From Membranipora membranacea (lineage: Eukaryota > Bryozoa > Gymnolaemata > Cheilostomatida > Membraniporidae), in the NCBI GenBank assembly GCA_914767715.1, contig OU612074.1:2619501-2683500 (forward strand): a DNA stretch of 64,000 nt, read 5' to 3'. Shown piece after piece: positions 854 through 48,567 of the stretch (the stretch's first letter is position 1; the number at the start of each line of letters is the position of its first letter). Under the pieces are notes generated by a model. That model was given only the letters and a program-made list of their open reading frames with translations. It made no database searches and was not told the origin of the DNA. The position numbers and the translations under genes were made by a program.

Positions 854-876
854 GAAGGCGAACTACCTAGCTACTA

Positions 877-6800: not shown

Positions 6801-9800
6801 TTCGTACTGACAAGGAAGCTCGATAATACTTTTTTGTTGGTCTTGAAGATGTTATACAAACTAAATATGATGCTTTTTACTGATATAAGCTAAATAGTGA
6901 CATTCCTTGATGAAAAAAATTTCCTGTTGCAGGTGTGTGTGATCTGTAAGTTTGAGTTTCAGATAACTTTGAGTTCTGCCTTTTTGTTATAACTTTATTG
7001 AGTTAGGTTAGGGGACCAACTTGGATGAATTTACACTTGGAATCAAAAATAATACTCAATCAATTCTTAGCAGCAGTTTGGTACCTGGTGTTTTTTCTGC
7101 AGTATCAATCATTTGTTGAGTCATAGATAGAACAGATCTATCACTGGTGTAGTCAGCATTCTTCACCAGAAGTAACTGAAAGGCATCGTATCCTGATATA
7201 ACAACTCGTTTAGTGCCGCCAATCTCCATTGTGAAAACCTGATAATTGAAAAGAATCTCATGGACAGAAGGAGTGCATGACTTACCTCCTCTCTGCAGTC
7301 AGAAGGATGGTGAGTTATTTATTTAGGAACTGAAAACCTTTCTGGCCATACTTAGACCTAAATTGAGAGAATTGTAATCGAGAGACAGTTTGAAGCGCTA
7401 TCTCTGTTACCAGTTGTGACGATAAGAACAACTCTGCTTATCTTACAGGGAAGGGAAATATTGAACCGATAAGGATCCTGTCATACCTGTCGCTATAATC
7501 TATTATATCTTGTCTGGTCAAAATCAAAGATAGAATGCCATAATAATAAAAAGTGTGTAATCTGACATTGGTTCAGCACAGTGATCGAGGTTACGCGTAT
7601 TTGTTTTGCAATGTCATGCAAATGTGATATTATAATCATTTTTAATGCTCTTCGGTATTCCAACTATACTGTGAGTGGTGACATAATAAAAAAGCTCTAC
7701 GCTTGGACCTGATCATCATGGTACCCAGCCATAATGCCATGGTCAAAATGCCATTGGGACAAAATGTCAGTGACACAATGCCATTACCATAATGCCATGG
7801 CCATAATACCATAGGTGATAACACCACTGCACATTATGCCAATGCCAAAATACCAGTTGTACAAAACGCCAGTTGTGTCAAAATACCAGTGGATAAAAGG
7901 CCGGATTGGACATAATACCATTTGGGACAACATACCATATCCCAAAATACCAATGCCATAATGCCAAAATATGTTACCAAAGGAGATCAAGCCACGCTGT
8001 ATATTTTCTTGTTAGTTATATCAAGGAGTTTGAAACTGTAACTGTAACTCCCTGGTTATATTACAGCTGCGAGTTGCTCAGTCAGAGTAGAAGGTGCTTC
8101 AGCTGGTTAGAGACATCTCCTTCACTGCTCAAGTCTCGAAGTTTCTACGCTTGAATCTTGATGATCTCTGGGGTTTGTTGGGCCCCATGTGTACCGAAGG
8201 CTAGTGTGTGTTTCAGAAATTGCAGCCAAATATTGTGCTGCAAACTCTGGGATATGGCAAAACAATTGACTCTCTAAAGTTGACCAAATTTATGTCTTGG
8301 CTAGAAGGGTTTTGACTGGTCTTGACTGATGCTATTACTGGCGTCATTAAGGCTAGCATGATTGAACATAATCTAGGAAAATTCTGTTCATGAGTTCATG
8401 AGTATGCAGTTAAGCATAAAAATACAACCTTTTTCAGTGCTAAGACACTGAAAATGTGACATCTGAGGCAAGGCCATTTCTAGAACAGTCAAAATGATTA
8501 GCTTTGTATTGGATACTTTTTTACATCTTGTTTATAGCTTTCAACGTGATACCGACACATTGGGCAACATATTACAATGCCTAGTTTTTCTTTTTTATAG
8601 CAACAAGAATAAACTTTTCTGATATGTTTTCCACTTAGTGCACCCCCCCCCCCGTACCTGCTATGCACCACTTGACAAGAGGTGCCCCACCAGCCTGACT
8701 ATGAGATTGCATACTGGCCCTGCTCAAACTCTTAGAAGGTACTTGTTGAACAAGGCTATACATGCCATTGCTTAACAAGGACCTCTATCCTAGCTTTTTA
8801 TTGGTGTTACGAAATTTAAATTTGTTGGATCAAGTGTTGTATTCATGGTTTAAAATCATGTTTAAAATATTTTGAATTGAGCATGATTTCAATAAAAGTT
8901 TCAAAATTCTGTATTCCGAAAGCATTTGTAATGGCATGATTTTTCATAATTATTAGAAATGTGACCCCTGGTCTAATTCCCTTGATGAGACGCAGAGCAT
9001 TTTTGCAGAGTCGTAGCTAGCTATCACTTGCGTTGCCCCAGAACTCTAATTCTTAGATCAAATCCGGATGTAAAAGATATAAATAATGTCAACCATTTGA
9101 TTTTGCATGTTCATGGAAAGTTATATTAGAGTTTCAACCTACAAATTTTGTTGTTCCTTTTTCTTCTAAAATAGAGTTCCCTAATATGAGCTTTTACAAA
9201 CCCCTATAAAATGACTTTGCTGAATACGATGGACATGGCCTAGCCGTGAAAGTTCATTTTGGGTGAACAGACTTCTTTTTTTCTTGTTAGTTGTGACTGT
9301 AACTTTTTATACAACTAATAAATGCAGAGTTAACCTGCTCTATGTTCAATCATTGTGGTCTTATCGATGTCATTAGTAACATGAGTCAAAACTTGGCTTT
9401 CGAAAAAAAGTTGGTAATAATCCAGAGTTATTGTCATTATAATTCTAGAGTATAGTTGGGAAATATTTGTTACAAGTCACTAGCCCTCAGTTTGTGGACG
9501 CCAAAAAACTCCAGAGATCATCAAAATTCAAACGTAGAAGCTTCGAGACTTAAACAGTGAATGAGATGGCTCTAACCAACTGAACCACCTCCTGCTCTGA
9601 CCAAGCAATTCGCAGCTGTAATATAACTAACAATGAAAATAAGGCGTGGTTTGGTCTCCTTTGGTAACATATATTGGCATTATGGCAATGGTATTTTGGG
9701 ATATGGTATTTTGTCCCAAATGGTATTATGTACAATCCGGCTTTATGTCCACTGGTATTTTGACACAACTGGCGTTTTGTACAACTGGTATTATGGCATT

Positions 9801-10349
9801 GGTATAATGTGCAGTGGTGTTATCACCTATGGCATTATGGCCATGGCATAATGGCAATTGGCAATGGCGTTATGTCACTGGCATTTTGTCCCAACGGCAT
9901 TTTGGCCATGGCATTTTGACACGGAATCGACTGTCATAATGTGCTTCTCGATGTGGCTAATTGGCTCTTTCTACTGCTGACATCCAAAAAGAGCCACTCC
10001 CCTGACTCCACGATGCAGACTAATTATTTAATTGCCACATCATGAAAAACATTAGTAATAATGAATTGTTGCTGACAATAAAAGTATATATATATATGCT
10101 GAACAAGTGATGACTGGGTGCAAAACTGTTAACACAAATTATACTTACATTTCCGAATTTTCTTCTGTTTGCCTCGCAGAATTCCATGATATCTCCATAC
10201 CACATAAACTGATGTAGATTTCCAAGTATCGGTAACTTCCAGGGTCCTGGAGGAAAGCGATCACCTTTTGATTCACTAAACAGGTACCAAGACAGCAGAA
10301 ATGCGCAAATCGCCACCAGAGCTGTTGTGTAATCCAACTCAAAAATCAT
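877..10349 (-). CDS. Cytochrome P450, CYP2-clan-like (copy A)
   Basis: Heme-thiolate monooxygenase, probably anchored in the endoplasmic reticulum. Exons on the minus strand: 10349-10149, 7238-7085, 6663-6148, 2763-2620, 2143-2004, 1500-1350, 1052-877. All junctions are GT-AG and phases agree (0,1,1,1,0,1). They sum to 1482 nt, or 493 aa plus a TAA stop, the normal microsomal P450 length. An N-terminal hydrophobic anchor (about residues 8-25) is followed by the proline hinge PPGPWKLPILGNLHQF. Other hallmarks are the I-helix AGTMTS (about 304-309), the K-helix ETLR (360-363), PERF (415-418) and the heme loop FGLGRRECLG with Cys440. No disabling change was seen, so it should be functional. Substrate cannot be predicted. 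Introns 2-4 are packed with repeats, and exons 2-3 lie between inverted copies of one repeat. Confidence 0.93.
3190..3420 (+). mobile_element. Reverse-transcriptase fragment of a non-LTR retrotransposon (dead)
   Basis: Frame from 3196 reads GAPQGSVLGPALFIIL, the conserved block that precedes the catalytic motif in LINE-type reverse transcriptases. After a frame change and a stop, LLFADNTNIFS follows at about 3303; the family motif is FADD, here FADN. It is truncated, shifted and clearly non-functional, and lies in intron 3 of the P450 gene. The duplicate is at about 24351-24581. Confidence 0.75.
3647..3768. mobile_element. Foldback element with 9-bp target duplication (MULE-like MITE)
   Basis: Two arms of about 56 bp (3647-3702 and 3713-3768) are almost perfect inverted complements around a 10-bp loop. 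Termini are TAGTTTAAGTGCTCAAAC and its complement. The element is flanked by the exact 9-bp direct repeat AATGATATC (3638-3646 and 3769-3777). A 9-bp duplication with long inverted repeats is typical of Mutator-like elements, so that class is inferred. No coding capacity. Confidence 0.85.
4080..6000 (+). repeat. Interspersed repeat, forward arm (inverted partner at 7720-9250)
   Basis: The reverse complement of 7720-9250 aligns along most of this interval. Shared segments include the stretch near 4140-4260, a segment containing CTCATGAACTCATGA near 4830, a block ending in CGCAGCTGTAATAT near 5740, and a terminal array of degenerate GGYATTNTG units. The forward arm is interrupted by a nested 576-bp MITE (4884-5459). 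With its partner it flanks P450 exons 3 and 2. No intact ORF was recognised. The copy B counterpart is about 25250-27170. Confidence 0.85.
4884..5459. mobile_element. Nested MITE with TTAA target duplication
   Basis: Perfect terminal inverted repeats AGGCCAAGCCCAATGAAGTT and complement bound a 576-bp element flanked by TTAA at 4880-4883 and 5460-5463. The inverted partner repeat at 7720-9250 keeps the uninterrupted site (GCC-TTAA-TGACG on its complement), which proves insertion. TTAA targeting is known for piggyBac and Kolobok transposases; which one mobilised this is unknown. An 86-codon open frame inside (5179-5439) matches nothing I recognise and is probably chance. Copy B: about 26054-26628. 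Confidence 0.88.
7720..9250 (-). repeat. Interspersed repeat, reverse arm
   Basis: Inverted partner of 4080-6000. It lacks the nested TTAA MITE and so shows the empty site for it (near 8340-8350). It contains a poly-C run (8643-8653) and a short palindromic insertion (8022-8054). The copy B counterpart is about 28890-30470, with the poly-C run at 29812-29824 (13 rather than 11 C). Confidence 0.85.
8022..8054. mobile_element. Very short palindromic insertion, 33 bp, 7-bp target duplication
   Basis: Begins CAAGGAGTT and ends AACTCCCTG, with the exact 7-bp direct repeat GTTATAT on both sides (8015-8021 and 8055-8061). The related repeat near 9612-9625, read on the complement, has a single GTTATAT running straight into TACAGCTG, so it is the empty site. 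Confidence 0.85.
9480..9940 (+). repeat. Interspersed repeat, third partial copy
   Basis: Forward-orientation partial copy of the same repeat. It includes the segment matching 5640-5760 and the degenerate GGYATTNTG array, and ends in TTTTGACACGGAATCG. That end is the reverse complement of the sequence at about 3099-3114, where another array begins, so these may be the termini of the family. The copy B counterpart is about 30710-31155. Confidence 0.75.
9668..9938 (+). repeat. Degenerate 15-17 bp tandem array (GGYATTNTG units)
   Basis: Successive units start with GGCATT or GGTATT, continue TTTG or TATG and vary in the last 5-7 bases, giving a period of about 15-17 bp. Similar arrays occur at about 5789-5992 (forward), 7717-7975 (reverse) and, short, at about 3099-3160 (reverse). 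The arrays create many short open frames on both strands, which I do not regard as genes. Counterparts in copy B are near 26968-27150, 28892-29147 and 30910-31150. Confidence 0.8.
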
Positions 10350-10516
10350 TTTCTCAGAGTATGCTAGACAATTTGTTGTGTGCAGTTTAACAGAGTTGTT
10401 TAAAGCCTAAAACTGCAAATGCAAATATAACTCTCCACAGGATTAAGGTTGTCCATATATATATATATATATAATGGTGATTTTCAATCAGTGTGTGGAA
10501 TCGTTGGTACATGAAA

Positions 10517-10543
10517 CAAGGAGTTAAAGACTTTAACTCCTTG
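10517..10543. mobile_element. Very short palindromic insertion, 27 bp, 7-bp target duplication
   Basis: Perfect palindrome with 13-bp arms (CAAGGAGTTAAAG and complement) around one central base. It is flanked by CATGAAA at 10510-10516 and 10544-10550. It lies about 170 bp upstream of the P450 start codon, between the divergent P450 and membrane-protein genes. Confidence 0.88.
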
Positions 10544-12219
10544 CATGAAATAACGGACCACACTCATTGGTTCTTTATTTGTCGTTTTGTGCTGATTTGA
10601 TTTATTGGCATCTTTTGTGTGGAGTTTTGTAATATATGCCTTAGTCCAAGATGGGTAAAATATATAAAAGTTCGGCTTAATATGATTGCTGAAACATCAA
10701 TCAGGTGAAATGCGGTTGTGGAAATAACACTAATACTTTCATTCTTTCTTTCTTCTGTCTCTGTTTCTAGGTCAAGTTTAATGTTGTAGATGGCTTTATT
10801 TACTGCCATAATGAATATATGTGTCTGTTAATATAGAGGATATGACCTCGGACAAATTAGATCCAGTTTGCTTTAATTCAGAACCGCTGCACAAAGCGGG
10901 ATGAAACAAGATTTATAACCACAGTGAATTACAACTTATAACAAAAACACCATTTGATCACCATGGCCTTGGTGTTTGCAGAAACTCATACTGATTTTAA
11001 TCCTTGGCACTGGATCACAAATGGACATTCCAATCAGCATTAAACACTAATTTAAGTTCATTTCTGCTACCCACACAACATGAAATAAATTGTTTTTGTT
11101 TATAAATTATTTATGCAAAGATCCCTAGTGCAATCGTACTCAAACTTGTTTATATCAAATACAATGCTTCAATCCGCTATACATGCCACATTAATTTCTG
11201 TCAGTTCAACAGTTTTTAACAAGCTCTGGAAGTCACTGGAACTTCATAGTCAACTAAAAAGCTACCAATTGATATATCAGAATATCAGAGACTGCAGCTG
11301 ATAGAATCCACTTGCACCCAAATGACATATATCAGTAATTGCAACTGTTCAGATACTGAGACTGTAGACTGCGCAGCGTGCCAAAAAGCTACATAGGAAA
11401 ACTTTTTACTCTGTCAGCAGATAAAATAGCTGTGCATTTTGTTGATTTACTAATTATGGCCAGTGTACAAGGAAAAACTGTGGACTAGCTTACTGTTTTC
11501 TCACGTAAATATAACTTTGTATAACAGATTTAGCAAGTTGGAGATTGACTTTTGGTCCAACATGACATTATGAGTAGCTTACCAGCATAAGTGATCACTA
11601 ATGTTTATATCGGGTTTCTGTTTCCGAGATAAAAAAACAGTTGTGTGCTTGTGCTTGTTTGGGATCCGCCCAATTTTCCGAAAGTCATTTTTCCACATCA
11701 TGTTAGCCGTCATGCCACCGGCCGCCATGATATTTTATCGCCAAGTCTTTTTCTCTTCATAATGATTTCCCACTCTGCCATTTGCCCACCTGGACGTTTT
11801 CCCGCCAATCTATTTGTCCACCTAGAAAACTGTCTATAGCTTGGTGGGAAAGTGTCCTGTTACCCCCACTAATGTGAGTAATTTGTAATAATCAGAGTTA
11901 TCTGGCAAGAGACATGTTAGTTTGGAAGCTTGGCAGACTAGACAGTATATTTTCACATCAAGTGTTCTCTTGCTTTAATATCAAAGTACTACTATCAGTA
12001 AGACTGCCGTGCTCATTGGGGAAGCCATCTGAGAAAAACAAGGTAGAAAAATTAGTACCACTATTGATCAGACAGAAGCGTGCTCTGCGAGGAAGCCATT
12101 GATGAATAAGATGTAGACTGGAATGTTAACAATGATCATTCTACACGTGAATCTTCATCAGTATAGTTGGATTTATTTCAGCCTTCTGGTGGATTATTGT
12201 GAATATTTTATTAGTAATA

Positions 12220-12289
12220 ATGGATGTATATCATGAACGCAAACCTTCTCAAACTCGCCAGATTCTGGTACCTGCCCTAATGACTCTAG
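12220..12289 (+). pseudogene. Orphan first exon of the MDVYHER membrane-protein family
   Basis: ATG followed by MDVYHERKPSQTRQILVP... and a GTGAGT donor in phase 1 after 23 codons. It is identical in form to exon 1 at 33449 and 61533. Homology to copy B ends about 40 bp into the following intron (12331), and the transmembrane exon found at 33674 has no counterpart downstream. This copy therefore seems to have lost the rest of its gene, unless unrelated exons are captured. Confidence 0.7.
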
Positions 12290-12331
12290 GTGAGTGTTTT
12301 GTGTCAAAGTTTAAATGGACTAATTTCTATT

Positions 12332-13074
12332 TAATGATGTTATTTGGAGTAATAGACAACATGGCACGTAAAGTTATAGAAAAGTGACAAGAAGGACTAC
12401 ATCACAAGCCTGGTAGGCCTATGGCAGAAGTGGTCACATGACTTGAAAATGCAAAATTTCTGGCAACAGTATTGCGCGATGGGTGCCCAAGCTAAGGTGC
12501 AGAAAAGCTTTATAGTAATTTGATACAAATGACAGAAACATCTACTAATATAGCAAATTTTAGGCACTACATCAGTGGTACTGAATGGCATGAGAGACTA
12601 AATTTTCATACCTATAATTGGCGCTGTTATTGAGGAGTGAGGATCGTCAGTTTCAACACAAATTTAGAAGAAACCTTCCGGATGCCAGTCGGTTTAGTGC
12701 ATGGGAACCCAACTACTGTTTAATCTTGTGTGAACCTTCCCTCAGTGATTCAGGTCAATGGACACAAAGGTGGTCAAACTTTGAGGCTGATCTTAAAAGA
12801 TGGCACTCTGTCTGGCTACTATTGCAGCTGGGTTCTGCTTCTTCCGGCGTACCTGTGGGATGAGAAGCCTGCAGCAATCTCGAATTACTGTGTGATATTC
12901 TCTGAATAAGCCTGAAAAGAAACAAAGGCACAGTTGAACATCCGATCTGACTTGATACTGGGATGATAAATAATGATCACTCTATAGCTCAGGGACACCT
13001 ACAGTATGTGATGTATTTTTAAGGTGGACGGATATTCGTGGCGTTTTTTGCACTCTAGTATGCTATCTGATATG
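12332..13074. other. No gene recognised
   Basis: Unique AT-rich sequence between the end of duplication copy A and the 3' end of the caspase gene. It probably includes that gene's 3' UTR. No AATAAA for the minus-strand gene was found by eye. Confidence 0.5.
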
Positions 13075-21814: not shown

Positions 21815-21820
21815 TTTATT
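21815..21820 (-). promoter_or_regulatory. Polyadenylation signal AATAAA of P450 copy B
   Basis: Same position relative to the stop codon (21846-21844) as in copy A. Confidence 0.6.
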
Positions 21821-21843
21821 GAAGGCGAACTACCTAGCTACTA

Positions 21844-24800: not shown

Positions 24801-27800
24801 TGATATCTAGTTTAAGTGCTCAAACAGTGCAAGATGCTGGTAGAGGCATTTTATTATCAACCAGGAGAGGAAGTGGTTGATAATGAAATGCCTCTACCAG
24901 CATCTTGCACCGTTTGAGCACTTAAACTAAATGATATCCTATTTTCACATCCTTTTGGTAATACTATATAAGAGATAGTTTTTTCTCAGTTTAGTGTATG
25001 TTGTTTGAGAGAGCAATAAAGATGCTGGTAAGCAATTAAAAGTCTCGTCAATTCGCCCTAGTAACCGCTCAGTGTGCGGCATAGTGGTTTAGTGCTGTCA
25101 CATTGTGATAAACCAAGGATTTCTTGAAATCCTTGGATAAACAATGAGAAAACCTTTTTGAAACCCCAAACAAAATTTTTAACCAGAAGATTAAAAGCTC
25201 ATATTCGGGAACTATTTTAGAAGAATAAAGAACAATATAACTTTCCATGAACATTTTAGAAGCCTGAGAAGGGAATTAAATTTAACCCTGATGATGATAC
25301 GAGCACTCGGTTCAGCCATTGAGCAGAATCTAGAATTAGAGTTCTGGGGCCACGCAAGTGATAGTCAGATTCGACTCTACAAAAAATGCTCTGCTTGTCA
25401 TCAAGGGAATTAGACCAGGGGTCAAATTTCCAATAATTTTGAAAAACTAAAAATCATGCTATTACAGATGCTTTTTGAATACAGAATTTTGAAACTTTTA
25501 TTAAAATCATACTCAATTCAAAATAATTCAAATATGATAACAACCATTAATACAACGCTTGATCCAACAAACTTGAATTTCTTAAAAACCAGTAACGAAC
25601 GAGGAGAGAGGTCCTTGTAAAGCAATGGTATAGCCTTGTTCAACAAGTTCATTTTGAGAGTTGGGGCAGGGCCAGGGTACGATCTCACAGTCGGGCTGGC
25701 GGAGCGTCTCTGGTCAAGTGGTGCATAGCGGTTACGATGAGCACGAAGTGATATCAGAAAAGTTTATATTTGATGCAATTAAAAAGAAAAACTGGGCATT
25801 GTAATATGTTGCCAAATATCTCGGTAACAGCCATGAAAGCTATGAACAAGATATAAAAAAATATCCAAATACAAAGATAATCATTATGGCTGTTTTAGAA
25901 ATGGCCTTGCCTAAGTTGTTTGTGTAGATTTGTCACTTTTTCAGTGTCTTGGCGCTGAAAAAGATTGTATTTTCATGCTAAGCTGCATACTCATGAACTC
26001 ATGATCAGAACTTTCCAACACTTTGTTCAATCATGCTAGCCTTAAAGCCTTAAAGCCAAGCCCAATGAAGTTCTAACTTACTGTATGTTTTTCATGAGGT
26101 TCTAAGCTCTCATTTGAGCCATTGGACAAAACTCTACACCTACCACAGGCAGATCTGTTGATGCTCAAAGCTGATGCTTCATGAAAACAGTCATGGTCCC
26201 AGCTCATGACGTCACAAGCAGTGTTTTCTTAAATTACTGTGATACCGGATATATGATGCCAAATATTAGGGGAGTGATGGTACAGATCCCCTCAAAAACT
26301 TTGGAATGAGTGAATAAGATATCAGACTACAATCACCTTAATTTTTATTGGATATTTTTGCTAGGAACAATCAGATAACAATGGATATTACAAACAGTAA
26401 AAACCATTATTGGCAAATGTTAAACACTGTCTATGACGTCAGAAGGTCAAGGACATTTAAATGGTTTCTCAATGTGACTGAGTTTATTGACTGTTTGATG
26501 GAGATGTCATCTTTGAGCATCAGCAGACCTGGTTGTGGTAGGTATAGAATCTTGTCCAATGGCCCATCTGAAAGCTCATCACCTAAAGTAAAACATGACA
26601 ACACTTAAAACTTCATTGGGCTTGGCCTTTAATGACGGCGGTAATAGCATCAGACAAGACCAGTCAAAAACCCTTCAAGCCAAGACATAAAGTTGGTCAT
26701 ATTTAGAGAGTCAATTAATTTGCCATAACCCAAAGAGTTGGCGTCCAAGTATTTAGCTGCAATTTCTGCAACACACACTAGTCTTCAGTACATTGGGGCC
26801 CAACAAACCTGGGAGAAAAAAATTCAAACATAGAAACTTCGAGACTTGAACAGTGAATGAGATGGCTCCAACCAGCTGAACCACCTCCTACTCTGACTGA
26901 GCAACTCGCAGCTGTAATATGACTTACAGAAAAATACAGCATGGTTTGATCTACTTTGGTTACATATTAGGCATTATGGCAATGGTATTTTGGGATATGG
27001 TATGTTGTCCCCAATGGTAATATGTCCAATCTGGCTTTATATCCACTGGTATTTTGTCACAACTGGCATTTTGTACAACTGGTATTTTGGCATTGGTATA
27101 GTGTGCAGTGGTGTTATCACCTATGGCATTATGGCCATGGCATTATGGCAATAGAATTATGTTGAGTTTTGGGTTGGGTTTCTAGTCTGGGTTCGGGGTA
27201 TATAGCATCTTGTAGATAATGTCTATCATAAATCCTACTAAATGCTTTTACGACGTTCATTTCACAACATTACAAAGCTGGTGCAGTTTTCAAAATTAAA
27301 CAAGACAATGTTACCAACCTGAAAAAGCTGATGTCCCATTCTGCTCATATTCCCCTCGGCTAATTATGAAGTTGTCCAGCACATCTCGAGGGCTATCTGG
27401 ATCCACAGTCTCCTTGTGTTCGTCTATCAGGGATCTCAGCACCTTGAATTGTTCCCCTACTACCCTCTGACTCTCCTTAACGAGTGACGCCAGAAATAAG
27501 GAGCTGAACGGAACGTTCTTAAAGGTAGAGGTCACACCAATGGTTCCGACATCCGTATTCAGTGAGGATATCATATCAATAAATACCTGATCGTCATACT
27601 CTCTCCTGTTACCGAACAGAAGCTGAGAGATGATGTTACATGTGACTAAGGCGAGGCTGATGCCGTGCTCCACAGGCTTGCCTTCGTACGGCTCGATGAA
27701 CACTTTCATAAACTGAGATATCTCTGATAGTATCTGAGGCTCCATCGCTGCTTTGCCCATCCCTCCGTTACGTAACGTCGTGAGGGTAAAAGCACGCAAC

Positions 27801-30800
27801 GCTTTCCAATGAGGAGGGGGTGCCCAGAAAATACCTGCGAGAAAATAATGGTGTTAAATGTTAAGTTGGTGCAAGGGAAGCATCCATGTCTTGCATGGTC
27901 ATATTTTGCATGGTCTGATTTGACTTGGAAATATCATTTAATTCCTTGGAATCGAGTTGTACACAGAATTATTCGTACTGACAAGGAAGCTCGATAATAC
28001 TTTTTTGTTGGTCTTGAAGATGTTATACAAACTAAATATGATGCTTTTTACTGATATAAGCTAAATAGTGACATTCCTTGATGAAAAAAATTTCCTGTTG
28101 CAGGTGTGTGTGATCTGTAAGTTTGAGTTTCAGATAACTTTGAGTTCTGCCTTTTTGTTATAACTTTATTGAGTTAGGTTAGGGGACCAACTTGGATGAA
28201 TTTACACTTGGAATCAAAAATAATACTCAATCAATTCTTAGCAGCAGTTTGGTACCTGGTGTTTTTTCTGCAGTATCAATCATTTGTTGAGTCATAGATA
28301 GAACAGATCTATCACTGGTGTAGTCAGCATTCTTCACCAGAAGTAACTGAAAGGCATCGTATCCTGATATAACAACTCGTTTAGTGCCGCCAATCTCCAT
28401 TGTGAAAACCTGATAATTGAAAAGAATCTCATGGACAGAAGGAGTGCATGACTTACCTCCTCTCTGCAGTCAGAAGGATGGTGAGTTATTTATTTAGGAA
28501 CTGAAAACCTTTCTGGCCATACTTAGACCTAAATTGAGAGAATTGTAATCGAGAGACAGTTTGAAGCGCTATCTCTGTTACCAGTTGTGACGATAAGAAC
28601 AACTCTGCTTATCTTACAGGGAAGGGAAATATTGAACCGATAAGGATCCTGTCATACCTGTCGCTATAATCTATTATATCTTGTCTGGTCAAAATCAAAG
28701 ATAGAATGCCATAATAATAAAAAGTGTGTAATCTGACATTGGTTCAGCACAGTGATCGAGGTTACCGTATTTGTTTTGCAATGTCATGCAAATGTGATAT
28801 TATAATCATTTTTAATGCTCTTCGGTATTCAACTATACTGTGAGTGGTGACATAATAAAAAAGCTCTACGCTTGGACCTAATCATCATGGTACCCAGCCA
28901 TAATGCCATGGTCAAAATGCCATTGGGACAAAATGTCAGTGACACAATGCCATTACCATAATGCCATGGCCATAATACCATAGGTGATAACACCACTGCA
29001 CATTATGCCAATGCCAAAATACCAGTTGTACAAAACGCCAGTTGTGTCAAAATACCAGTGGATAAAAGGCCGGATTGGACATAATACCATTTGGGACAAC
29101 ATACCATATCCCAAAATACCAATGCCATAATGCCAAAATATGTTACCAAAGGAGATCAAGCCACGCTGTATATTTTCTTGTTAGTTATATCAAGGAGTTT
29201 GAAACTGTAACTGTAACTCCCTGGTTATATTACAGCTGCGAGTTGCTCAGTCAGAGTAGAAGGTGCTTCAGCTGGTTAGAGCCATCTCCTTCACTGCTCA
29301 AGTCTCGAAGTTTCTACGCTTGAATCTTGATGATCTCTGGGGTTTGTTGGGCCCCATGTGTACCGAAGGCTAGTGTGTGTTTCAGAAATTGCAGCCAAAT
29401 ATTGTGCTGCAAACTCTGTGGGATATGGCAAAATAATTGACTCTCTAAAGTTGACCAAATTTATGTCTTGGCTAGAAGGGTTTTGACTGGTCTTGACTGA
29501 TGCTATTACTGGCGTCATTAAGGCTAGCATGATTGAACATAATCTAGGAAAATTCTGTTCATGAGTTCATGAGTATGCAGTTTAGCATAAAAATACAATC
29601 TTTTTCAGCGCTAAGACACTGAAACTGTGACATCTGAGGCAAGGCAATTTCTAGAACAGTCATAATGATGAGCTTTGTATTGGATACTTTTTTACATATT
29701 GTTTATAGCTTTCAACATGATACCGTCACATTGGGCAACATATTACAATGCCTCGTTTTTCTTTTTGATCGCAACAAGAATAAACTTTTCTGATATGTTT
29801 TCCACTTAGTGCCCCCCCCCCCCCGTACCTGCTATGCACCACTTGACAAGAGGTGCCCCACCAGCCCGACTCTGAGATTGCATACTGGCCCTGCTCAAAC
29901 TCTTAGAAGGTACTTGTTGAACAAGGCTATACATGCCATTGCCATGCACAAGGACCTCTATCCTCGCTTTTTATTGGTGCTACGAAATTTAAATTTGTTG
30001 GATCAAGTGTTGTATTCATTGTTTAAAATATTTTGAATTGAGCATGATTTCAATAAAAGTTTCAAAATTCTGTATTCAAAAAGCATTTGTAATGGCATGA
30101 TTTTTCATAATTATTAGAAATGTGACCCCTGGTCTAATTCCCTTGATGAGACGCAGAGCATTTTTGTAGAGTCGTAGCTAGCTATCACTTGCGTTGCCCC
30201 AGAACTCTAATTCTTAGATCAAATCCGGATGTAAAAGATTATAAATAATGTCAACCATTAGATTTTGCTCAATGGCTGGACCGAGTGCTTGTATCATCAT
30301 CATCAGGGTTAAATTAAAATTTTTTTTCAGGCTTTTAAAATGTTCATGGAAAGTTATATTAGAGTTTCAACCTACAAATTTTGTTGTTCCTTTTTCTTCT
30401 AAAATAGAGTTCCCGAATATGAGCTTTTACAAACCCCTATAAAATGACTTTGCTGAATACGATGGACATGGCCTAGCCGTGAAAGTTCATTTTGGGTGAA
30501 CAGACTTCTTTTTTTCTTGTTAGTTGTGACTGTAACTTTTTATGCAACTAATAAATGCAGAGTTAACCTGCTCTATGTTCAATCATTGTGGTCTTATCGA
30601 TGTCATTAGTAACATGAGTCAAAACTTGGCTTTCGAAAAAAAGTTGGTAATAATCCAGAGTTATTGTCATTATAATTCTAGAGTATAGTTGGGAAATATT
30701 TGTTACAAGTCACTAGCCCTCAGTTTGTGGACGCCAAAAAACTCCAGAGATCACCAAAATTCAAACGTAGAAACTTCGAGACTTAAACAGTGAATGAGAT

Positions 30801-31583: not shown

Positions 31584-31746
31584 TTTCTCAGAGTATGCTA
31601 GACAATTTGTTGTGTGCAGTTTAACAGAGTTGTTTAAAGCCTAAAACTGCAAATGCATATATAACTCTCCACAGGATTAAGGTTGTCCATATATATATAT
31701 ATAATGGTGATTTTCAATCAGTGTGTGGAATCGTTGGTACATGAAA

Positions 31747-31773
31747 CAAGGAGTTAAAGACTTTAACTCCTTG
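31747..31773. mobile_element. Very short palindromic insertion, duplicate of 10517-10543
   Basis: Same palindrome and CATGAAA flanks (31740-31746 and 31774-31780), upstream of P450 copy B. Confidence 0.88.
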
Positions 31774-33448
31774 CATGAAATAACGGACAATACTCATTGG
31801 TTCTTTATTTGTCGTTTTGTGCTGATTTGATTTATTGGCATCTTTTGTGTGGAGTTTTGTAATATATGCCTTAGTCCAAGATGGGTAAAATATATAAAAG
31901 TTCGGCTTAATATGATTGCTGAAACATCAATCAGGTGAAATGCGGTTGTGGAAATAACACTAATACTTTCATTCTTTCTTTCTTCTGTCTCTGTTTCTAG
32001 GTCAAGTTTAATGTTGTAGATGGCTTTATTTACTGCCATAATGAATATATGTGTCTGTTAATATAGAGGATATGACCTCGGACAAGTTAGATCCAGTTTG
32101 CTTTAATTCAGAACCGCTGCACAAAGCGGGATGAAACAAGATTTATAACCACAGTGAATTACAACTTATAACAAAAACACCATTTGATCACCATGGCCTT
32201 GGTGTTTGCAGAAACTCATACTGATTTTAATCCTTGGCACTGGATCACAAATGGACATTCCAATCAGCATTAAACACTAATTTAAGTTCATTTCTGCTAC
32301 CCATACAATATGAAATAAATTGTTTTTGTTAATAAATTATTTATGCAAAGATCCCTAGTGCAATCGTACTCAAACTTGTTTATATCAAAAACAATGCTTC
32401 AATCCGCTATACATACCACATTAATTTCTGTCAGTTCAACAGTTTTTAACAAGCTCTGGAAGTCACTGGAACTTCATAGTCAACTAAAAAGCTACCAATT
32501 GATATATCAGAATATCAGAGACTGCAGCTGATAGAATCCACTTGCACCCAAATGACATATATCAGTAATTGCAACTGTTCAGATACTGAGACTTTAGACT
32601 GCGCAGCGTGCCAAAAAGCTACATAGGAAAAATTTTTACTTTGTCAGCAGATAAAATAGCTGTGCATTTGTTGATTTACTAATTATGGCCAGTGTACAAG
32701 GAAAAACTGTGGACTAGCTTACTGTTTTCTCACGTAAATATAACTTTGTATAACAGAATTAGCAAGTTGGAGATTGACTTTTGGTCCAACATGACATTAT
32801 GAGTGGCTTACCAGCATAAGTGATCACTAATGTTTATATCGGGTTTCTGTTTCCGAGATAAAAAAACAGTTGTGTGCTTGTGCTTGTTTGGGATCCGCCC
32901 AATTTTCCGAAAGTCATTTTTCCACATCATGTTTGCCGTCATGCCACCGGCCGCCATGATATTTTATCGCCAAGTCTTTTTCTCTTCTTAATGATTTCCC
33001 ACTCTGCCATTTGCCCACCTGGACGTTTTCCCGCCAATCTATTTGTCCACCTAGAAAACTGTCTATAACTTGGTGGGAAAGTGTCCTGTTACCCCCACTA
33101 ATGTGAGTAATTTGTAATAATCAGAGTTATCTGGCAAGAGACATGTTAGTTTGGAAGCTTGGCAGACTAGACAGTATATTTTCACATCAAGTGTTCTCTT
33201 GCTTTAATATCAAAGTACTACTATCAGTAAGACTGCCGTGCTCATTGGGGAAGCCATCTGAGAAAAACAAGGTAGAAAAATTAGTACCACTATTGATCAG
33301 ACAGAAGCGTGCTCTGCGAGGAAGCCATTGATGAATAAGATGTAGACTGGAATGTTAACAATGATCATTCTATACGTGAATCTTCATCAGTATAGTTGGA
33401 TTTATTTCAGCCTTCTGGTGGATTGTTGTGAATATTTTATTAGTAATA

Positions 33449-34594
33449 ATGGATGTATATCATGAACGCAAACCTTCTCAAACTCGCCAGATTCTGGTAC
33501 CTGCCCTAATGTCTCTAGGTGAGTGTGTTGTGTCAAAGTTTAAATGGACTAATTTCTATTAAAGGCTTGGTTTGGTACACATTGTCATACGTAACAATAT
33601 TCTCCAATACCAAAAACTGTGATATTTTATTCTACTTCCAGGAGTAACTTATTCTTTTCTTTTCCTCTTGTAGCCGTTGTGTTGCTCTTCGTACTGCGGT
33701 TTCTTGCTCTCTTTACTCAGCCGACATTCAACAGTGATCATTTTCTGGTAAGAAAATTAAATCATTTGAGTGGTCTCACAACTGACTGTCTGTTGGATTA
33801 TTTGGATTGAGCATTAAACTGAATCTGATTGAATATTTGATATAAAATTTAATTGATCTCTATATTTTCTGTATGTTGAGAGTTGAGAAAAACGTTGCAG
33901 CTTAGAGCAGTCAGTCCATGGTAAACTGAAGTACGCTTAGTCACAGAGTCCTTGATATCATTACTATGTCTATTGGGCCTTTCTATATAACCAGAGAGTT
34001 TGATAAGTATATAACTGAGTACTAAACTTTGAGATGATTATTATTATTATTGCAAGAAACATAATATATAGAAAACAAAGGGAGTTGTGTCCTCATGACT
34101 ATTGATTAGATAACTACCATCATTTGTGTTTCCATCTGTTGATACGGTTAATCCATCTCCATCAATAATTTAAAACAGTTGTATAATATGGAAATAACAA
34201 TATGTTATGTAATTATTATTATGTAAATGTAACTCAGTTGTCAGTACCGCGGAAAGCATATGCATTCTAGTTGCTTTCTTGTACTTATGCCAGTTGAAGA
34301 GTTGTTATCGGATAACAAAACAATAATTTCCGTATTCTAGACTCAACCAAGTTAGATAGCATGTTTCGGATTGATCTTTGTTAACCCTGGTCAAGGAGTT
34401 GTAGACTCCTTGCCCTGGTTGACCTCACTCTTCCTGCATTGTAAAAACTATCAGAGTTGTCTCCTCTTTCATCGCACAGAAACCCTTAATGTTGTTACCA
34501 TTCAACAGATAGCATACAAACAAAAACAAAATGCATTGTTACAAGTTCACACAATGCAGACAAACTGGAGAGACTCATTTTCAGAGATTGTTAG
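33449..34594 (+). CDS. Membrane protein, 5' exons (MDVYHER family, copy 2)
   Basis: Exon 1 33449-33518, exon 2 33674-33747, exon 3 34509-34594; junctions GT-AG, phases 1, 0, 2. The N-terminus is a short basic cytoplasmic stretch (MDVYHERKPSQTRQ). One hydrophobic segment then runs from exon 1 into exon 2 (about residues 16-39, AVVLLFVLRFLALF), with no signal-peptidase site obvious. The third exon (IAYKQKQNALLQVHTMQTNW) looks helical and would be outside the cell if exon 1 is inside. The same three exons, open and with the same phases, recur at 61533-62709. This conservation supports a real gene. It probably continues into the exons at 38348-44285, but phases (2 versus 0) require at least one exon between them that I did not find. 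Confidence 0.65.
34392..34412. mobile_element. Very short palindromic insertion, 21 bp, 7-bp target duplication
   Basis: CAAGGAGTT-GTA-GACTCCTTG bracketed by CCCTGGT at 34385-34391 and 34413-34419. The paralogous block has a single CCCTGGT at 62528-62534 with identical flanks (TTAA before, TGACC after), which is the exact empty site. Confidence 0.92.
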
Positions 34595-35440
34595 GTTAGT
34601 ATTTTATCTATTGTAGTAGTGTAGTTATAGAAATAAGAGTAAAATTCAGACTCAAAATTAACATATATACCTAGTTATTTATCCTTACTATCCTATTATT
34701 ATGTTACATATAAAACAGATACACTTTCAACCTTATCAATCGCCTGCCTGCCTGCCCTGCTGAAGTACAACTAACTAACTAAAAATTAGAAAGAAAGTAG
34801 AGTAGAGGCACAGCACATATATTGTAGTATACAATAGATGCAGTACATGATAGCAAGTTGATACTAATAAAAGGGGATTATCAAGAATTACAAACACCCC
34901 CACCGAACAAAGCTTGTTAAGACAGGCTAGGAGGGTGGCATGCAGGCCATGCAAATCTCATGCAATGTAATGAAGGTCATATAACTCAGCCTGCCTAACA
35001 AAAACATCTCTTCAATTGAATACATATTTGATGAAAGGTGTCTGCGATGCCAGACTGTGGTTTCAAGGCTTCAAAGTCTCGGTACTAAAACGCTTGGTGG
35101 TACTCATTACAAAAGTTTATGTTGTTCTGAATGGGCACTAACTAAAACCCGGGTGGTGTAATATATATATTACACATTTATTCTGGTTGTGTTTATAAGT
35201 CCAGGGACTTTCATCTAGAAAACAAAGAGAAAAATACTTTCTTTTAAAAGAAACAATGCTAAGGTATTGAGTAAATTATAATATAGCGGGTGAATTTATA
35301 GGAACACACAAAGATATGAAAATACAGAGAATACAGGTAGGCCTAAATCAGATTATTGCAATTAAAAATTTACAATTTAATGGAGAAAATAAAGAAAAGA
35401 CTTATAGTATTAAAAAGTGTAGCTAAAAGTATAAAGAAAT
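34595..35440. other. Intron or intergenic, no gene recognised
   Basis: AT-rich sequence collinear with 62710-63570. It includes a CTGCCTGCC repeat (34743-34757). I looked for an exon linking phase 2 to phase 0 and could not decide on one. Confidence 0.4.
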
Positions 35441-35449
35441 TAGAAAAGT

Positions 35450-35668
35450 CTATACACGAAAAATGTGGCTTTTGACGTCAAACTTGAAAGATTTGAGATC
35501 ATGGCACAGCTTAACGGTCGGGGACAAGTCATTGTATAATTTGGCACCAAAGTGCGCTAGTGAGAACCTGTATTTGTCCTTGGCTAGCATCAAATGTAAT
35601 GTAAGACATGTGCCAGGTGCTGTTTGGTCAGACCTCACAATACCGCTAGAGGAGCAGCCCTCCCTCAC
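35450..35668 (-). mobile_element. LINE ORF2 C-terminal fragment
   Basis: A 72-codon open frame reads EGCSSSGIVRSDQTAPG, then YRFSLAHFGAKLYNDLSPTV, then FKFDVKSHIF. The last two match the terminal 'YR-A-G-KLWN-LP...FK-LKTHLF' pattern common in LINE ORF2 proteins. Upstream frames are broken. The paralogous copy is at 63583-63801. The first part is homologous to the satellite unit that follows. Confidence 0.65.
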
Positions 35669-35819
35669 ATTTTATCCCTCTTTGCATGTCAAAGATCTCT
35701 TTTAACTCACCAATATTTTTATCTATGTGATGCTGATAGAATGAGCCTACTCTCTAAGTGCTGTGCAAAACAAAGATTTTTAAGTCTGCAAAGATTCACC
35801 CTTCAAAAGTTTTTTTTTC

Positions 35820-44519: not shown

Positions 44520-45284
44520 TTACTGGTCACACAGTGTCACTCTCACAACAAAGAAAGCTTGTTTTTACAGGGATGCCATTTTTGCAATTTCCAGCTTGCT
44601 TCACTCAGAAAAATGTTGAAGCTTTTTATTGCAAGGGAAACTCTGTTATCTTACCTCCACAGTACATAATATACCTTGTATATGCTTATTATATCACTAT
44701 TACTGATAATGTGCAGCTATTTAATATTATTGCCTAACCTACCACAGTTGTTAGGCTGTTCCTTCTAGGTCGAATAAACTACATGGACAATATCATTCAC
44801 AAAGCCAGGTAGAATGGCGCAATCCGGGACTCAGAGTGGTCCTCCAAGTTTGGAGTTCGTCCGCCGGTATCATCTGGTTTCTGGGTCTGTCAACTTGTCA
44901 AGTTTGGTTAATCCGCAATAATACCACTCATTGCAGCACGTTACAGAACCACGGTTAGAATTGAATGTCTAGAATGTCAGCAAATATAAATATTATTTTA
45001 TAATGGGCTTTGAAATATTTACGCACATAATGCGAAGTAGTTAAAATTTGGTCCTAATTTTTGTTCAAATGACGTATCTCGCGAGGTGAGCGATCTCTGG
45101 CCAGTGCGAGTGTATGTTTATATAGACGGAAGTTCTTCTGCTTACAACCAATTAAGATCAAAATCTTATTTTACAAATTAAAATTATAGGTACAGAAAAT
45201 GTAGTCACTCAATATCATAAAATAAGACATCAACACAAAATATTTCCTTGGTTATCAAATCTGTTTGAGGCAGATAAGTTTTAG

Positions 45285-45303
45285 CAAGGAGTTATACTCC
45301 TTG
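45285..45303. mobile_element. Very short palindromic insertion, 19 bp (first of a pair)
   Basis: CAAGGAGTTATACTCCTTG between two copies of GTTTTAG (45278-45284 and 45304-45310). Confidence 0.88.
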
Positions 45304-45310
45304 GTTTTAG

Positions 45311-45338
45311 CAAGGAGTTGTAGGTCTACAACTCCTTG
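45311..45338. mobile_element. Very short palindromic insertion, 28 bp (second of a pair)
   Basis: Perfect 14-bp arms (CAAGGAGTTGTAGG... and complement ending CTCCTTG), flanked by GTTTTAG at 45304-45310 and 45339-45345. The middle GTTTTAG is shared with the first insertion, so one inserted exactly at the duplicated target of the other. Confidence 0.9.
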
Positions 45339-46387
45339 GTTTTAGAGCTGCTATCTATACATCAAAAAGTATGGGACAACTCTTACTATAGCTGCTACAC
45401 TTTGTACAGGCGAATCAAATTACTTTTGTGCAGATTTGGTTTTAACAGCACAAGTTTTCACTATTATAATTAGAAAAAAGACAAAAATTCAAAAGTTTAT
45501 TTCTCCAAGAAAATCTGATCTCATTTGGCTTGACTGTGACTTCACTGTATGCAAGAGATAACTACCATTGTGTCATCAGGGAGGGTGTCCCTGGTGTCAT
45601 TGCTAATTATCAGTCAGGAAAAGAGGTCAGGCAATAAATTCTTTTGACTTTAATTGTCACATAGCTCTGCTTGCACTCTACTCTAGCCTGTCTTGTTAAT
45701 AAAGCCACTTTATTTTACAAAATAGTTGTGCTGTGCCTTTTACCAGTGGTTCCTACATATTGTAGCAGTTGGTGAAATGTGTAAACCCACAAATAAATGA
45801 GTGTAGCAAGAGTGGAGAACTGCTGGCTTCAGGACAGCTATCAAACAGTTCCCCCAAGTCCAACCATCATCACACATCCAACACATATTCAGACAAGCAA
45901 ACTTTGCCTGCCCTGCCCATTGCACTCCTTTGTTCCCCAAACAAAAGGCCTTTTGTTTTACAAGTCTGATAGTGGTCTTGGGACATGTCCGAAGCAAGGT
46001 TCCCAGCCAGACATCGTCCTATCCAACATCTACAGCACAACAGTCCTTTATTTTGTAAAGCTTTGATTGTCATCCGAGCACAACAACAAAGCTAGCCAAC
46101 CGTATGCACCATCTGTTAATGTATCTCCATCTTCAACCCAGAGAGGTGGTCGATCATGGATAGACCTTGGAATTAACAAAGAAGTATGCATTCTGGTAAC
46201 AAATTTTCAAGATTATGTTTGTTGATGCAATCATATGATATATATGAGTACATAACTCTTCTCAACACAAACAGGTATATTTAGCATTGAAGAATAACAC
46301 TGTGTTGTGTTGTGGCTCGTTAGATTTGAGCAGTTTATTATTACTTACAGGTTGAGGGTCTAATCTATTGCTACAATCTTTATAACT

Positions 46388-48567
46388 ATGGATGACAGTG
46401 GGCAGGACACAAGCCAAGGTGGAGACAGCCTCTTGTTTCAGGTAGGCTATGACAGTAAGAATACATTTACTCATTCAAAAACTCATTCAACTGTCATTGT
46501 TGTGGTGTCGGAATAATATTTTGATGATGTCGTCAAATATAGGTTCTTGGAGCCCGGTGATGTAAGAACCTAACCTGACCTCAAATTATATCTCACCAGT
46601 GCAACGTCTTTTCCAAACTCGAAACAAGTCAGTTTAACAAGCTAAACAACATGATCAGTGTGATGTACCGCAACGTTTATATATCTATTCACTGAGAGTT
46701 TGTTAAGTTGTTGAAACGTATCTCATACAGGTAGTGATGTATGTATACAGAAGTAAATTTTTGCTACAACTGTCTCTTGATTTAGGTACCACCAGTATAT
46801 AATTATACAGTTGCCTCCATACAGAATCGTACAACTCTTAGTTTGATATCAAGCAAGCTTATTTCGTCGTTATACTACATATTATACTTAATTATTGCCA
46901 ATCAATCGTTCTGTTTTTAGGATGCACTAAGCAGCCCTCCAGCGAATAGCCCTTCCAGGATGCCCATCACCAAGTCACGCTCAAAGGAAAGTCTGAGTGA
47001 TCAGACCCCACATAGTGGTGAGAAGCGTGGTGATGGCGAGCATTACACAGATAGCAGGCCGAGTTATCAGTCCCCACAGGCTGACACCAACACTAGTTTA
47101 TATTTGGATGCAGAGGAGTCTCCCATTTACTGTTATATGGAGAAGAACTTCAGTTCCGACTTTAGAGGCAAACTCACTGGTCTGTTTACAGCTGATATTT
47201 ATACCTATCGATAGAGTATTGTAGTTTTTTAATCCACATAACCATGGCACATATGGTGTTTGGCGGGTTCGAGTTGGAGCTTTTTCTTCTATAATTTCAT
47301 GTTACCAAACTTGAAAATTAGTAATTCATACCATATGAGCTCTCATACATGCACAAAGAAAGAACTGTATGTTGACTGTGCATCATCTCATATTGATATT
47401 CTCTTGAAGAGCCAGAGCAGTGACGTATTTGACCAAGTCTTTAACTCCTTGATTTGACACAAAAAATAAACGTATTAGTGCAAATTAAATCTCTCTGCGT
47501 TGACTACATCATGTGATATACATGTATCTTTGTATTGTATATTTTATATTGTATTATATTACAGCTTTAAATGGTATTACCGGTGATGCTGGTATTGTAA
47601 GCAGCAGTGCTAACTCCTCTAATGTGGAGTTATCTCTCATGCATGATACGAGATTACTAGTGTTACATTATCTATCATCAGATCAAGGCGACAGCTCAAA
47701 TACGACTACCACTACATCTGAGATCAATCACTCTCAAGGTATGAATACATAGATAGTTTAGTTGTAGCAATCCTCACAGAGTGCTAGTAGATTGTCTTAC
47801 CTTATTTTAACATTAAACTACTGCTTCAAGTCTCAGAAAAAAATTTTCTTGTTGACACAAAATTTGCGGAGCAAAATTGTCAAAATCAGGGATTGAATTC
47901 AATGATGATGCTGATTAGTCAAAATTGTTACTTGGAAAACCTCATTAATTGTTTTCACTCCAGCCCTTAAAAGCGTTCAGGATGGCGATCGCGGTCGTAG
48001 GCGGTCCTTAACGACTGCCTACGACCGCGATCGCCATCCCGAACGCTTTAAGGGCTGGCTCTGCCTAGAACTCAATACTCGTTATGATAGAGTTATAATA
48101 ATCTAATCTAATCATCTAATCATCTACGATTCCACTAAATATTTTCTTCCTTATGTCATTTGCAGCTTGCCTTTCCAAATGTTTTCTAATAATAATATTT
48201 CAGAGCCAAAGAGGATAGATCTCAGAATGAGGATACAGAATCAGTGACTACTGAACATTTCCCAGTAACCCTCTTACCTTCTACAAGACTAGTGAGAGGT
48301 ATGTGGAGTGATACTAGTACGATTAATTGAATCATTCTACTTACCCTGATAAGCTGAATGCAACAAGAGGATCCTCTGTGCCTAGTAAAGAAATATCACA
48401 TGTTATTATTGAGTTATTTCCAATCTCCTTGTTGCAAGCGTTCAAGACTGTTTGATTTGAGGTTGCAGAGTTTATTTGGGGTTCGTCATTACTACCATAC
48501 TAATCTGCCCCATCTGTCTCACTATATGGTGCTTTAATAAGCTATACACATTGCTGCGGTGGAAAAG
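46388..48567 (+). CDS. Unrecognised single-pass membrane protein
   Basis: Exons 46388-46441 (ATG), 46921-47179, 47565-47738, 48206-48298, 48462-48567; GT-AG throughout, phases 0,1,1,1,2. The first about 190 residues are hydrophilic, rich in Ser, Thr, Asp and Gln (MDDSGQDTSQGGDS at the start). A transmembrane helix follows (VYLGFVITTILICPICLTIW) with basic residues after it (NKLYTLLRWKR), so the C-terminus is probably cytoplasmic. No signal peptide at this start. Exon 2 has a second good donor in the same phase (GTGAGA at 47020), suggesting alternative splicing that would drop about 53 residues. A 16-bp microexon at about 48769-48784 and the exon at 53461 could continue the frame (phases fit), but this is weak. 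No domain recognised. Confidence 0.55.
47434..47451. mobile_element. Very short palindromic insertion, 18 bp, decayed
   Basis: CAAG-TCTTTAACTCCTTG between ATTTGAC at 47427-47433 and 47452-47458. The right arm is intact and the left arm seems internally shortened, but the 7-bp direct repeat is exact. Confidence 0.8.
47961..48057. repeat. GC-rich long palindrome, arms about 42 bp
   Basis: Left arm 47961-48002 and right arm 48017-48057 pair nearly perfectly around a 14-bp loop. They contain GATGGCGATCGCGGTCGTAG and its complement. It is far more GC-rich than its surroundings. Termini are CAGCCCTTAAA / TTTAAGGGCTG. No target duplication seen. It lies in an intron of the 46388 gene. It may be a MITE. 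Confidence 0.85.

What the first reader, a model, noticed from the sequence alone, without database searches (positions are those of the whole stretch)
8015..47458. A family of 18-33 bp palindromic insertions with exact 7-bp target duplications
Six independent sites (8022-8054, 10517-10543, 34392-34412, 45285-45303, 45311-45338, 47434-47451, plus two inherited duplicates in copy B) share the form CAAGGAG...CTCCTTG. Each is bracketed by a perfect but different 7-bp direct repeat: GTTATAT, CATGAAA, CCCTGGT, GTTTTAG (both members of the pair) and ATTTGAC. Different target sequences with a constant 7-bp length are the mark of staggered-cut integration. At under 35 bp these are far smaller than ordinary MITEs, and the middle varies while the ends are fixed. 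I do not know a described element class that fits. They could be end products of a transposase acting on bare termini, or repair scars of aborted transposition.
Basis: seen in the sequence. Interest (0 to 1): 0.92.

Follow-up and report, generated by a model that had tools for sequence, protein, structure and literature searches.

The report
Palindromic scars left by departed transposons
The tiny palindromes are best read as scars left when P-element-like jumping genes cut themselves out and the broken ends were rejoined; this animal-like genome carries over a thousand of them, so they record where vanished transposons once sat and how their enzyme cut.

Summary
The listed palindromes exist, each with an exact 7-bp direct repeat; the window holds two more, at 3952 (copy 25114) and 45577. 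Paralogous empty sites prove insertion at 34392 and 8022. Genome-wide: 1103 such palindromes against 1 for the reversed pattern; of 40 consecutively listed sites 26 have an exact 7-bp repeat, 34 at most one mismatch. Best explanation: excision footprints of P-superfamily DNA transposons, not a new class of tiny element. (1) A related family has complete elements encoding P transposase, with ends identical over 25 bp and 8-bp duplications; short palindromes made of those ends have 8-bp repeats too (5 of 8 exact, 7 of 8 with at most one mismatch) and keep at most 17 nt of the end, 18 where the base is shared by both arms. The P transposase makes a 17-nt stagger (PMC7776569). (2) CAAGGAGTTGTAGACCT scars show joints 17+2+17, 17+3+17 and 17+9+17. 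(3) Numbers fall from 1103 to 53 above 48 bp, many of the latter with filler made of end sequence. Gap: no unambiguous complete element with CAAGGAGTT ends was found.

The parts
25107..25142 (.). inherited copy of the 3952 footprint in copy B of the segmental duplication
8015..8061 (.). footprint 8022-8054 (33 bp; read by eye as arms CAAGGAGTTTGAAA and CAGGGAGTTACAG around a CTGTAA duplication), repeats GTTATAT; empty-site paralogs at about 5.7 and 9.6 kb
   Evidence: arm split by eye
29184..29230 (.). inherited copy of the 8022 footprint
10510..10550 (.). footprint 10517-10543 (27 bp, 13+1+13), repeats CATGAAA; the same 27-mer lies at L082, L087 and L117 with other flanks
31740..31780 (.). 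inherited copy of the 10517 footprint
34385..34419 (.). footprint 34392-34412 (21 bp), repeats CCCTGGT; clean empty site in the paralogous block 62409-64000
45278..45310 (.). footprint 45285-45303 (19 bp), repeats GTTTTAG; the right repeat is shared with the next footprint
45304..45345 (.). footprint 45311-45338 (28 bp, 13+2+13, CAAGGAGTTGTAG type), repeats GTTTTAG; the pair recurs with one base difference at C10:2691390 outside the window
47427..47458 (.). footprint 47434-47451 (18 bp, asymmetric, symmetric arm only 4), repeats ATTTGAC; the same 18-mer (other strand CAAGGAGTTAAAGACTTG) lies at L128 with repeat GTTAAAT

Best explanation
Each palindrome is the excision footprint of a P-superfamily cut-and-paste DNA transposon. 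Shown: an insertion event made a 7-bp target duplication. Inferred: a complete element with inverted ends CAAGGAGTT... inserted, and later its transposase cut one strand at the element's end and the other 17 nt inside each terminal repeat, leaving two donor ends that each carry the 7-bp duplication plus a 17-nt single strand of the terminal repeat. End joining then filled in, trimmed and joined them, often at 1-3 bp of microhomology and sometimes with filler copied from the terminal repeat. Because the two terminal repeats are inverted copies, the join is automatically a palindrome of up to 34 bp plus filler. Several related families (ends CAAGGAGTTARAGAC, CAAGGAGTTGTAGACCT, CAAGGAGTTTGAAA/CAGGGAGTTAC, CAATGAACTCCCTCTTC, and the 8-bp families with CATAGAGTT ends) did this, more than a thousand times in all.
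For: Insertion with duplication: empty sites; 7-bp repeats at 26 of 40 consecutive sites exact and 34 of 40 with <=1 mismatch, and at 17 exact plus 2 one-mismatch of 20 CAAGGAGTTGTAGACCT sites. Proven parent for a related family: complete elements of 5972 and 5987 bp in L078 and L079 with 8-bp duplications, ends of L078 identical over 25 bp, ORFs with Pfam Tnp_P_element, TNP-like RNaseH_N, GTP-binding and RNaseH_C domains. CATAGAGTTA-N0-30-TAACTCTATG occurs 192 times against 0 for the control; 8 of the 50 sites listed carry the L078 end beyond its first 11 bases (counted by eye). Those 8 have 8-bp repeats, 5 exact and 2 with one mismatch, one none; of 12 further consecutive sites with related ends of unknown parent, 9 exact and 1 with one mismatch (random pairs: 0 exact and 3 one-mismatch of 380). 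The scar thus has its parent's duplication length. Cut position: in the 16 arms of those 8 scars the 25-bp end is followed for 10-15 nt in 13, 17 in one and 18 in two, and in both of the 18s the last base is also supplied by the other arm. In CAAGGAGTTGTAGACCT scars the arm not used for selection matches 5,5,5,5,7,7,7,9,14,14,14,16x5 or 17x3 of those 17 bases (19 of 20 scored; L198 and L200 are copies of one site); at joints 17+2+17 (L194), 17+3+17 (L191) and 17+9+17 (L201) the 18th bases of the two arms disagree. A 17-nt stagger is stated for P transposase in PMC7776569 (passages). Length cut: 1103 sites with a gap of 0-30, 53 with 31-60, many of these with repeated end pieces. Identical 18-, 19-, 21-, 24- and 27-mers recur at different places. 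At least 134 P-transposase domain matches in the genome. Target words average (G/A)T(T/C)N(A/G)A(C/T), like GTANTAC of Galileo, a P-superfamily element with 7-bp duplications (PMC4168063, passages).
Against: No unambiguous complete element with CAAGGAGTT ends was found. Of 360 hits to CAAGGAGTTARAGACTYV the 12 cut-out loci are all scars (read by eye: 6 exact, 6 one-mismatch repeats); of 20 further picked sites 6 have the 7-bp word again (one of them, L144, without a matching right end), the rest are decayed or unclear, and five (L141, L145, L146, L149, L151) show no second end. The best candidate, L181, has CAAGGAGTTGTAGACCT at 114, a P-transposase domain at 572-1666 on the other strand and a near-matching end at 2833, but the flanks GATAAAC and GACCAAC differ at 2 of 7, the right end lies in a 25-bp palindrome, and the search that would settle the border did not complete. 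Every complete P element delimited here has an 8-bp, not 7-bp, duplication. For CAAGGAGTT the parent end beyond base 17 is unknown, so an arm could not score above 17; the cap rests there on the disagreeing 18th bases of three joints and on the mixed 18th letter (T 12, C 10, G 7 of 29; A excluded by the pattern). The recurrent 24-mer CAAGGAGTTARAGACAACTCCTTG is not explained by ARAGACTY ends without a further end type. Some CATAGAGTTATTATATACT palindromes have arms of 19 or more (parent unknown). A footprint test on a second proven family (CATAGACCTA, L159/L160) was sent twice and not answered.
Confidence: 0.86

Rival explanations
1. Micro-elements: the 17-40 bp palindromes are themselves the mobile unit, moved by a P-type transposase that recognises only the first dozen bases of the ends.
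For: No unambiguous complete CAAGGAGTT element in the sites examined; identical 18-, 24- and 27-mers at several places, most with their own 7-bp repeat.
Against: Middles differ from site to site with asymmetric arms, microhomology joints and filler, which a replicating unit would not show; the same objects carry the ends of a P family with complete elements, and that family's 8-bp duplication; Drosophila P elements need about 138 and 216 bp of their ends to transpose or excise (passage in PMC1562414; the same passage notes Anopheles P-MITEs with under 100 bp).
Confidence: 0.08
2. Footprints of another cut-and-paste superfamily (hAT, Mutator, PIF, Tc1/mariner or an undescribed one).
For: No CAAGGAGTT element with an assigned transposase was secured.
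Against: A 7-bp duplication and a 17-nt retained arm do not fit what I recall of those families (hAT 8 bp with flank hairpins, Mutator 9 bp, PIF 3 bp, Tc1 TA; no call); the ends CAAGGAGTTA resemble the P-family ends CATAGAGTTA of L078, and P-superfamily Galileo makes 7-bp duplications.
Confidence: 0.03
3. Internally deleted elements (terminal repeats joined after gap repair that stopped early), not direct end joining.
For: Would also give duplication - terminal repeat - inverted terminal repeat - duplication, as seen.
Against: Interrupted repair should leave remnants of all lengths; instead the count falls from 1103 to 53 beyond a 30-bp gap, and arms of the proven family stop at 17-18 of 25 matching bases. 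Gaps over 60 were not searched genome-wide.
Confidence: 0.03

Closest known systems
Excision footprints of the Drosophila P element
   Same: Terminal-repeat remnants of up to about 17 nt on each side between two copies of the target duplication, sometimes with filler; the 17-nt stagger and end-joining among the repair routes are stated in PMC7776569 (passages); the footprint sequences themselves are recalled, from no call.
   Different: Here the duplication is 7 bp for the CAAGGAGTT families, the ends differ, and the scars are counted in hundreds to over a thousand in one genome assembly.
Galileo (P superfamily, Drosophila)
   Same: 7-bp target duplication, palindromic target preference (GTANTAC); PMC4168063 passages.
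   Different: Galileo copies there are long elements; no transposase with 7-bp duplications was tied to the CAAGGAGTT ends here.
Pdre2 / THAP9 (zebrafish P-like element)
   Same: Ends start with CA (CATACCTGTCAAC), 8-bp duplication, P transposase homolog (PMC10983969 passages), like the CATA families of this genome; L160 has a THAP domain.
   Different: 13-bp terminal repeats; different sequence.
MITEs
   Same: Short, inverted ends, target duplication, many copies, no coding capacity.
   Different: No shared interior, far shorter, and an upper size limit that fits the cut position.

Membership tests
P-superfamily excision footprint | Direct repeats of the superfamily's length (7-8 bp) on both sides | tested here: met
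P-superfamily excision footprint | Site arose by insertion (empty site with one copy of the word) | tested here: met
P-superfamily excision footprint | Retained arms limited by the 17-nt stagger, measured against a proven parent end | tested here: met
   16 arms of 8 L078-type scars, at most 17, or 18 with the last base shared
P-superfamily excision footprint | The same limit for the CAAGGAGTT families | tested here: inconclusive
   consistent (three 17+n+17 joints with disagreeing 18th bases), but the parent end beyond base 17 is unknown
P-superfamily excision footprint | P transposase genes in the genome | tested here: met
P-superfamily excision footprint | Complete parent element with the same ends and duplication length | tested here: inconclusive
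   met for L078-type CATAGAGTTATCC ends; for CAAGGAGTT only the ambiguous L181
P-superfamily excision footprint | Element seen to excise and leave the scar | not testable with these tools
   needs cells or several individuals
MITE | Shared internal sequence of at least some tens of bases between the ends | tested here: not met
   (capped listings)
Longer CAAGGAGTT element copies | Longer copies with the same ends | tested here: inconclusive
   53 with gap 31-60, many of them two footprints side by side or with filler; gaps over 60 not searched genome-wide; window searched to 8 kb without a CAAGG or CAGGG hit

The most novel reading that the evidence does not exclude
The CAAGGAGTT palindromes are not scars but the smallest known mobile DNA units, 17-40 bp, that a P-type transposase inserts using only the terminal dozen bases, which would explain why palindromes are everywhere and complete CAAGGAGTT elements were not found.
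Probability: 0.07. Interest if true: 0.9.

Novelty: new variant of a known kind. Interest (0 to 1): 0.55.

Why it matters
Excision by cut-and-paste transposons is usually seen in assays over a few generations. Here one genome assembly keeps more than a thousand apparent end-joined donor sites, from P-type lineages with 7-bp and with 8-bp duplications. That lets one read the transposase's cut position from sequence alone outside Drosophila, measure the spectrum of microhomology and filler of break repair in this animal, count departed transposons, and date them by decay of the repeats. It also means that short palindromes with 7-8 bp repeats should be annotated as transposon traces before being taken for new elements or regulatory sites.

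Tried and rejected
Chance palindromes: rejected. RNA hairpins: no Rfam match at gathering threshold in the window, and empty paralogous sites show insertion. MITEs or longer copies: no pair with CAAGG or CAGGG ends and 7- or 8-bp repeats up to 8 kb in the window; gap 31-60 fell to 53. The first idea that the stagger was 13-14 nt (from the window's arms) was replaced by 17 nt when genome sites were read. Looking for the parent: loci and stretches around P-transposase matches gave complete elements with CATA ends and 8-bp duplications (L078/L079, L122/L123, L159/L160), and shorter pairs with CATACTTGCC (L051) and CATGGGCG (L053) ends, also 8 bp; no ends were found in L080/L081, L156, L157, L158 and L202. 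PDB sequence search with the L078 ORF: nothing. Species not identified: P450 and caspase domains suggest an animal. Not in print: searches (no paper; listings only, open-licence papers) showed no title or abstract opening that reports genome-wide P footprints or this palindrome family; most journals are not held. On checking the draft I found that could not score an arm above 17, because only 17 bases of that end are known; I added, reworded, and lowered confidence from 0.88 to 0.86.
Full report
What was checked. A scan that did not use the CAAGGAG motif found two more independent members: 3952-3973 with a copy at 25114, and 45577-45593 with CAGGGA ends. The window thus has 8 independent sites, 11 counting copies in the segmental duplication, whose halves are 98% identical. 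Ten shuffles give 0-6 rows of inverted ends plus 7-mer against 14 observed, and of 43 viral-contig loci holding the same palindrome pattern none has a flanking repeat of 5 bp or more.

They are insertions. Site 34392 has a paralog in the block 62409-64000 that carries one CCCTGGT and no insert. Site 8022 lies in a dispersed repeat whose four inverted relatives in the window have the GT(T/C)ATAT word once and no insert. Outside the window, L055 carries CAAGGAGTTTGAAAGTAACTCCCTG between GTTTGAG words, while L064 and L065 have a single GTTTGAG. The three footprints inside the segmental duplication are present in both copies, so they are older than it.

Genome-wide. The window lies in a 339-Mb assembly of 18 contigs. 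CAAGGAGTT-N0-30-AACTCCTTG occurs 1103 times against 1 for the reversed pattern. Of sites 5 to 44 in listing order, 26 of 40 have an exact 7-bp repeat, 8 more have one mismatch, and the exact repeat, where there is one, is always 7; flanks paired at random agree exactly in 3 of 1560 (three of the 40 are copies of one site). The first four listed sites gave three exact repeats and one with a single mismatch. The repeated words average (G/A)T(T/C)N(A/G)A(C/T) over 24 distinct words, a symmetric target preference similar to GTANTAC of Galileo.

An independent prediction held. The genome has at least 134 matches to the P transposase RNase H domain. Complete elements were delimited in L078 (5972 bp) and L079 (5987 bp), ends CATAGAGTTATCCCCCTAGA and 8-bp duplications, with ORFs in L078 holding the P-element HTH, RNase H and GTP-binding domains; L122, L123, L159 and L160 give further P families, also with 8-bp duplications. 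If palindromes are scars, these ends should also occur as short palindromes, and with 8-bp rather than 7-bp repeats. CATAGAGTTA-N0-30-TAACTCTATG occurs 192 times against 0. Only the first 50 are listed; 8 of them carry the L078 end past its first 11 bases, the others belong to related ends whose parents were not sought. All 8 and 12 consecutive others were read: 8-bp repeats are exact in 5 of 8 and 9 of 12, with one mismatch in 2 of 8 and 1 of 12, against 0 and 3 of 380 random pairs. L167 has none. The duplication length therefore follows the parent family.

The cut position. The two ends of L078 are identical for 25 bases. The 16 arms of its 8 scars follow that end for 10, 10, 10, 11, 11, 12, 13, 13, 14, 14, 15, 15, 15, 17, 18 and 18 bases, and in both of the 18s the overlap with the other arm is 1-2 bases, so the 18th base need not come from that arm. 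For the CAAGGAGTTGTAGACCT family, 29 sites have those 17 bases followed by something other than A (the 18th letter is T 12, C 10, G 7). Twenty of the 29 were read: 17 have an exact 7-bp repeat, 2 have one mismatch, 1 (L193, a copy of the L198/L200 site) has none. The arm on the other side matches 5,5,5,5,7,7,7,9,14,14,14,16 (five times) and 17 (three times) of the 17 known bases (19 sites, L198 and L200 being one). Because the parent end beyond base 17 is unknown, this tally cannot exceed 17; but at the joints 17+2+17 (L194), 17+3+17 (L191) and 17+9+17 (L201) the next bases of the two arms disagree. Other joints overlap by 1-3 bp, and the 19-mer CAAGGAGTTGTAGACCTTG occurs four times with four different 7-bp words. 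Beyond a gap of 30 the count falls from 1103 to 53, and many of those are two footprints side by side or carry repeated pieces of the end (by eye). That is what end joining of two 17-nt overhangs would leave. The P-element transposase is described as cutting 17 nt inside its terminal repeats, an unusually long stagger, with end joining among the repair routes of the donor site (PMC7776569, passages read).

Other families. CAATGAACTCCCTCTTC leaves 32- and 21-bp scars with 7-bp repeats (L045, L080). In L123 a P element sits inside what looks like a scar of yet another family (CACAGAGTAAGG, 7-bp ATAGCTT).

What is not settled. No unambiguous complete element with CAAGGAGTT ends was found. All 12 cut-out loci of CAAGGAGTTARAGACTYV (360 hits) are scars (by eye); of 20 more picked sites 6 repeat the 7-bp word exactly, others are decayed, and five show no second end. 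L181 joins an intact 17-nt end, a P-transposase domain and a second end 2.7 kb away, but its flanks match at 5 of 7 and the right end overlaps a short palindrome; the search that would settle its border did not complete (12 tries). So membership of the CAAGGAGTT families in the P superfamily is inferred from the joint structure, the ends, the duplication length and the related family. Two details are not fully explained: a recurrent 24-mer, and arms of 19 or more in AT-rich CATAGAGTTATTATATACT palindromes.

The tandem pair at 45285/45311 shares one GTTTTAG between its members; the simplest reading (inference) is that a second element used the same 7-bp target beside the first scar. The pair recurs, one base different, at C10:2691390.

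Verdict. A good observation with a known molecular cause on an unusual scale: end-joined excision scars of P-type transposons, kept in very large numbers.

Noticed in passing
1-12347 and 20965-33575: Segmental duplication about 98% identical carrying a cytochrome P450 exon (Pfam, 6143-6682) and its copy; a further block 33212-35866 is 87-92% identical to 61290-64000.
   Followed up: partly
40660-42155: 17-bp minisatellite (ACCTACACCACCCTGCC, 88 copies) open in all three forward frames.
   Followed up: no
36392-37979: 106/212-bp tandem array; related sequence extends to 35875.
   Followed up: no
47985-48034: Hairpin GCGATCGC-GGTCGTAGGC...GCCTACGACC-GCGATCGC; the repeat word is itself a palindrome, so no target duplication can be claimed.
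   Followed up: no
4220-9920 and copy B: Family of inverted repeats of 65-276 bp, partly with ATGGCATTATGGC-type subrepeats, around the P450 exons.
   Followed up: no
L123:74-6498: A P-type element (8-bp GGATATAT) appears inserted into a palindromic scar of another family (CACAGAGTAAGG, 7-bp ATAGCTT).
   Followed up: no
L122 and L123: P-type elements of about 6.4 kb with terminal inverted repeats of roughly 800 bp.
   Followed up: no
G000:C1:24037743-24037796: Two different 27-bp palindromes directly abutting without a repeat between them.
   Followed up: no
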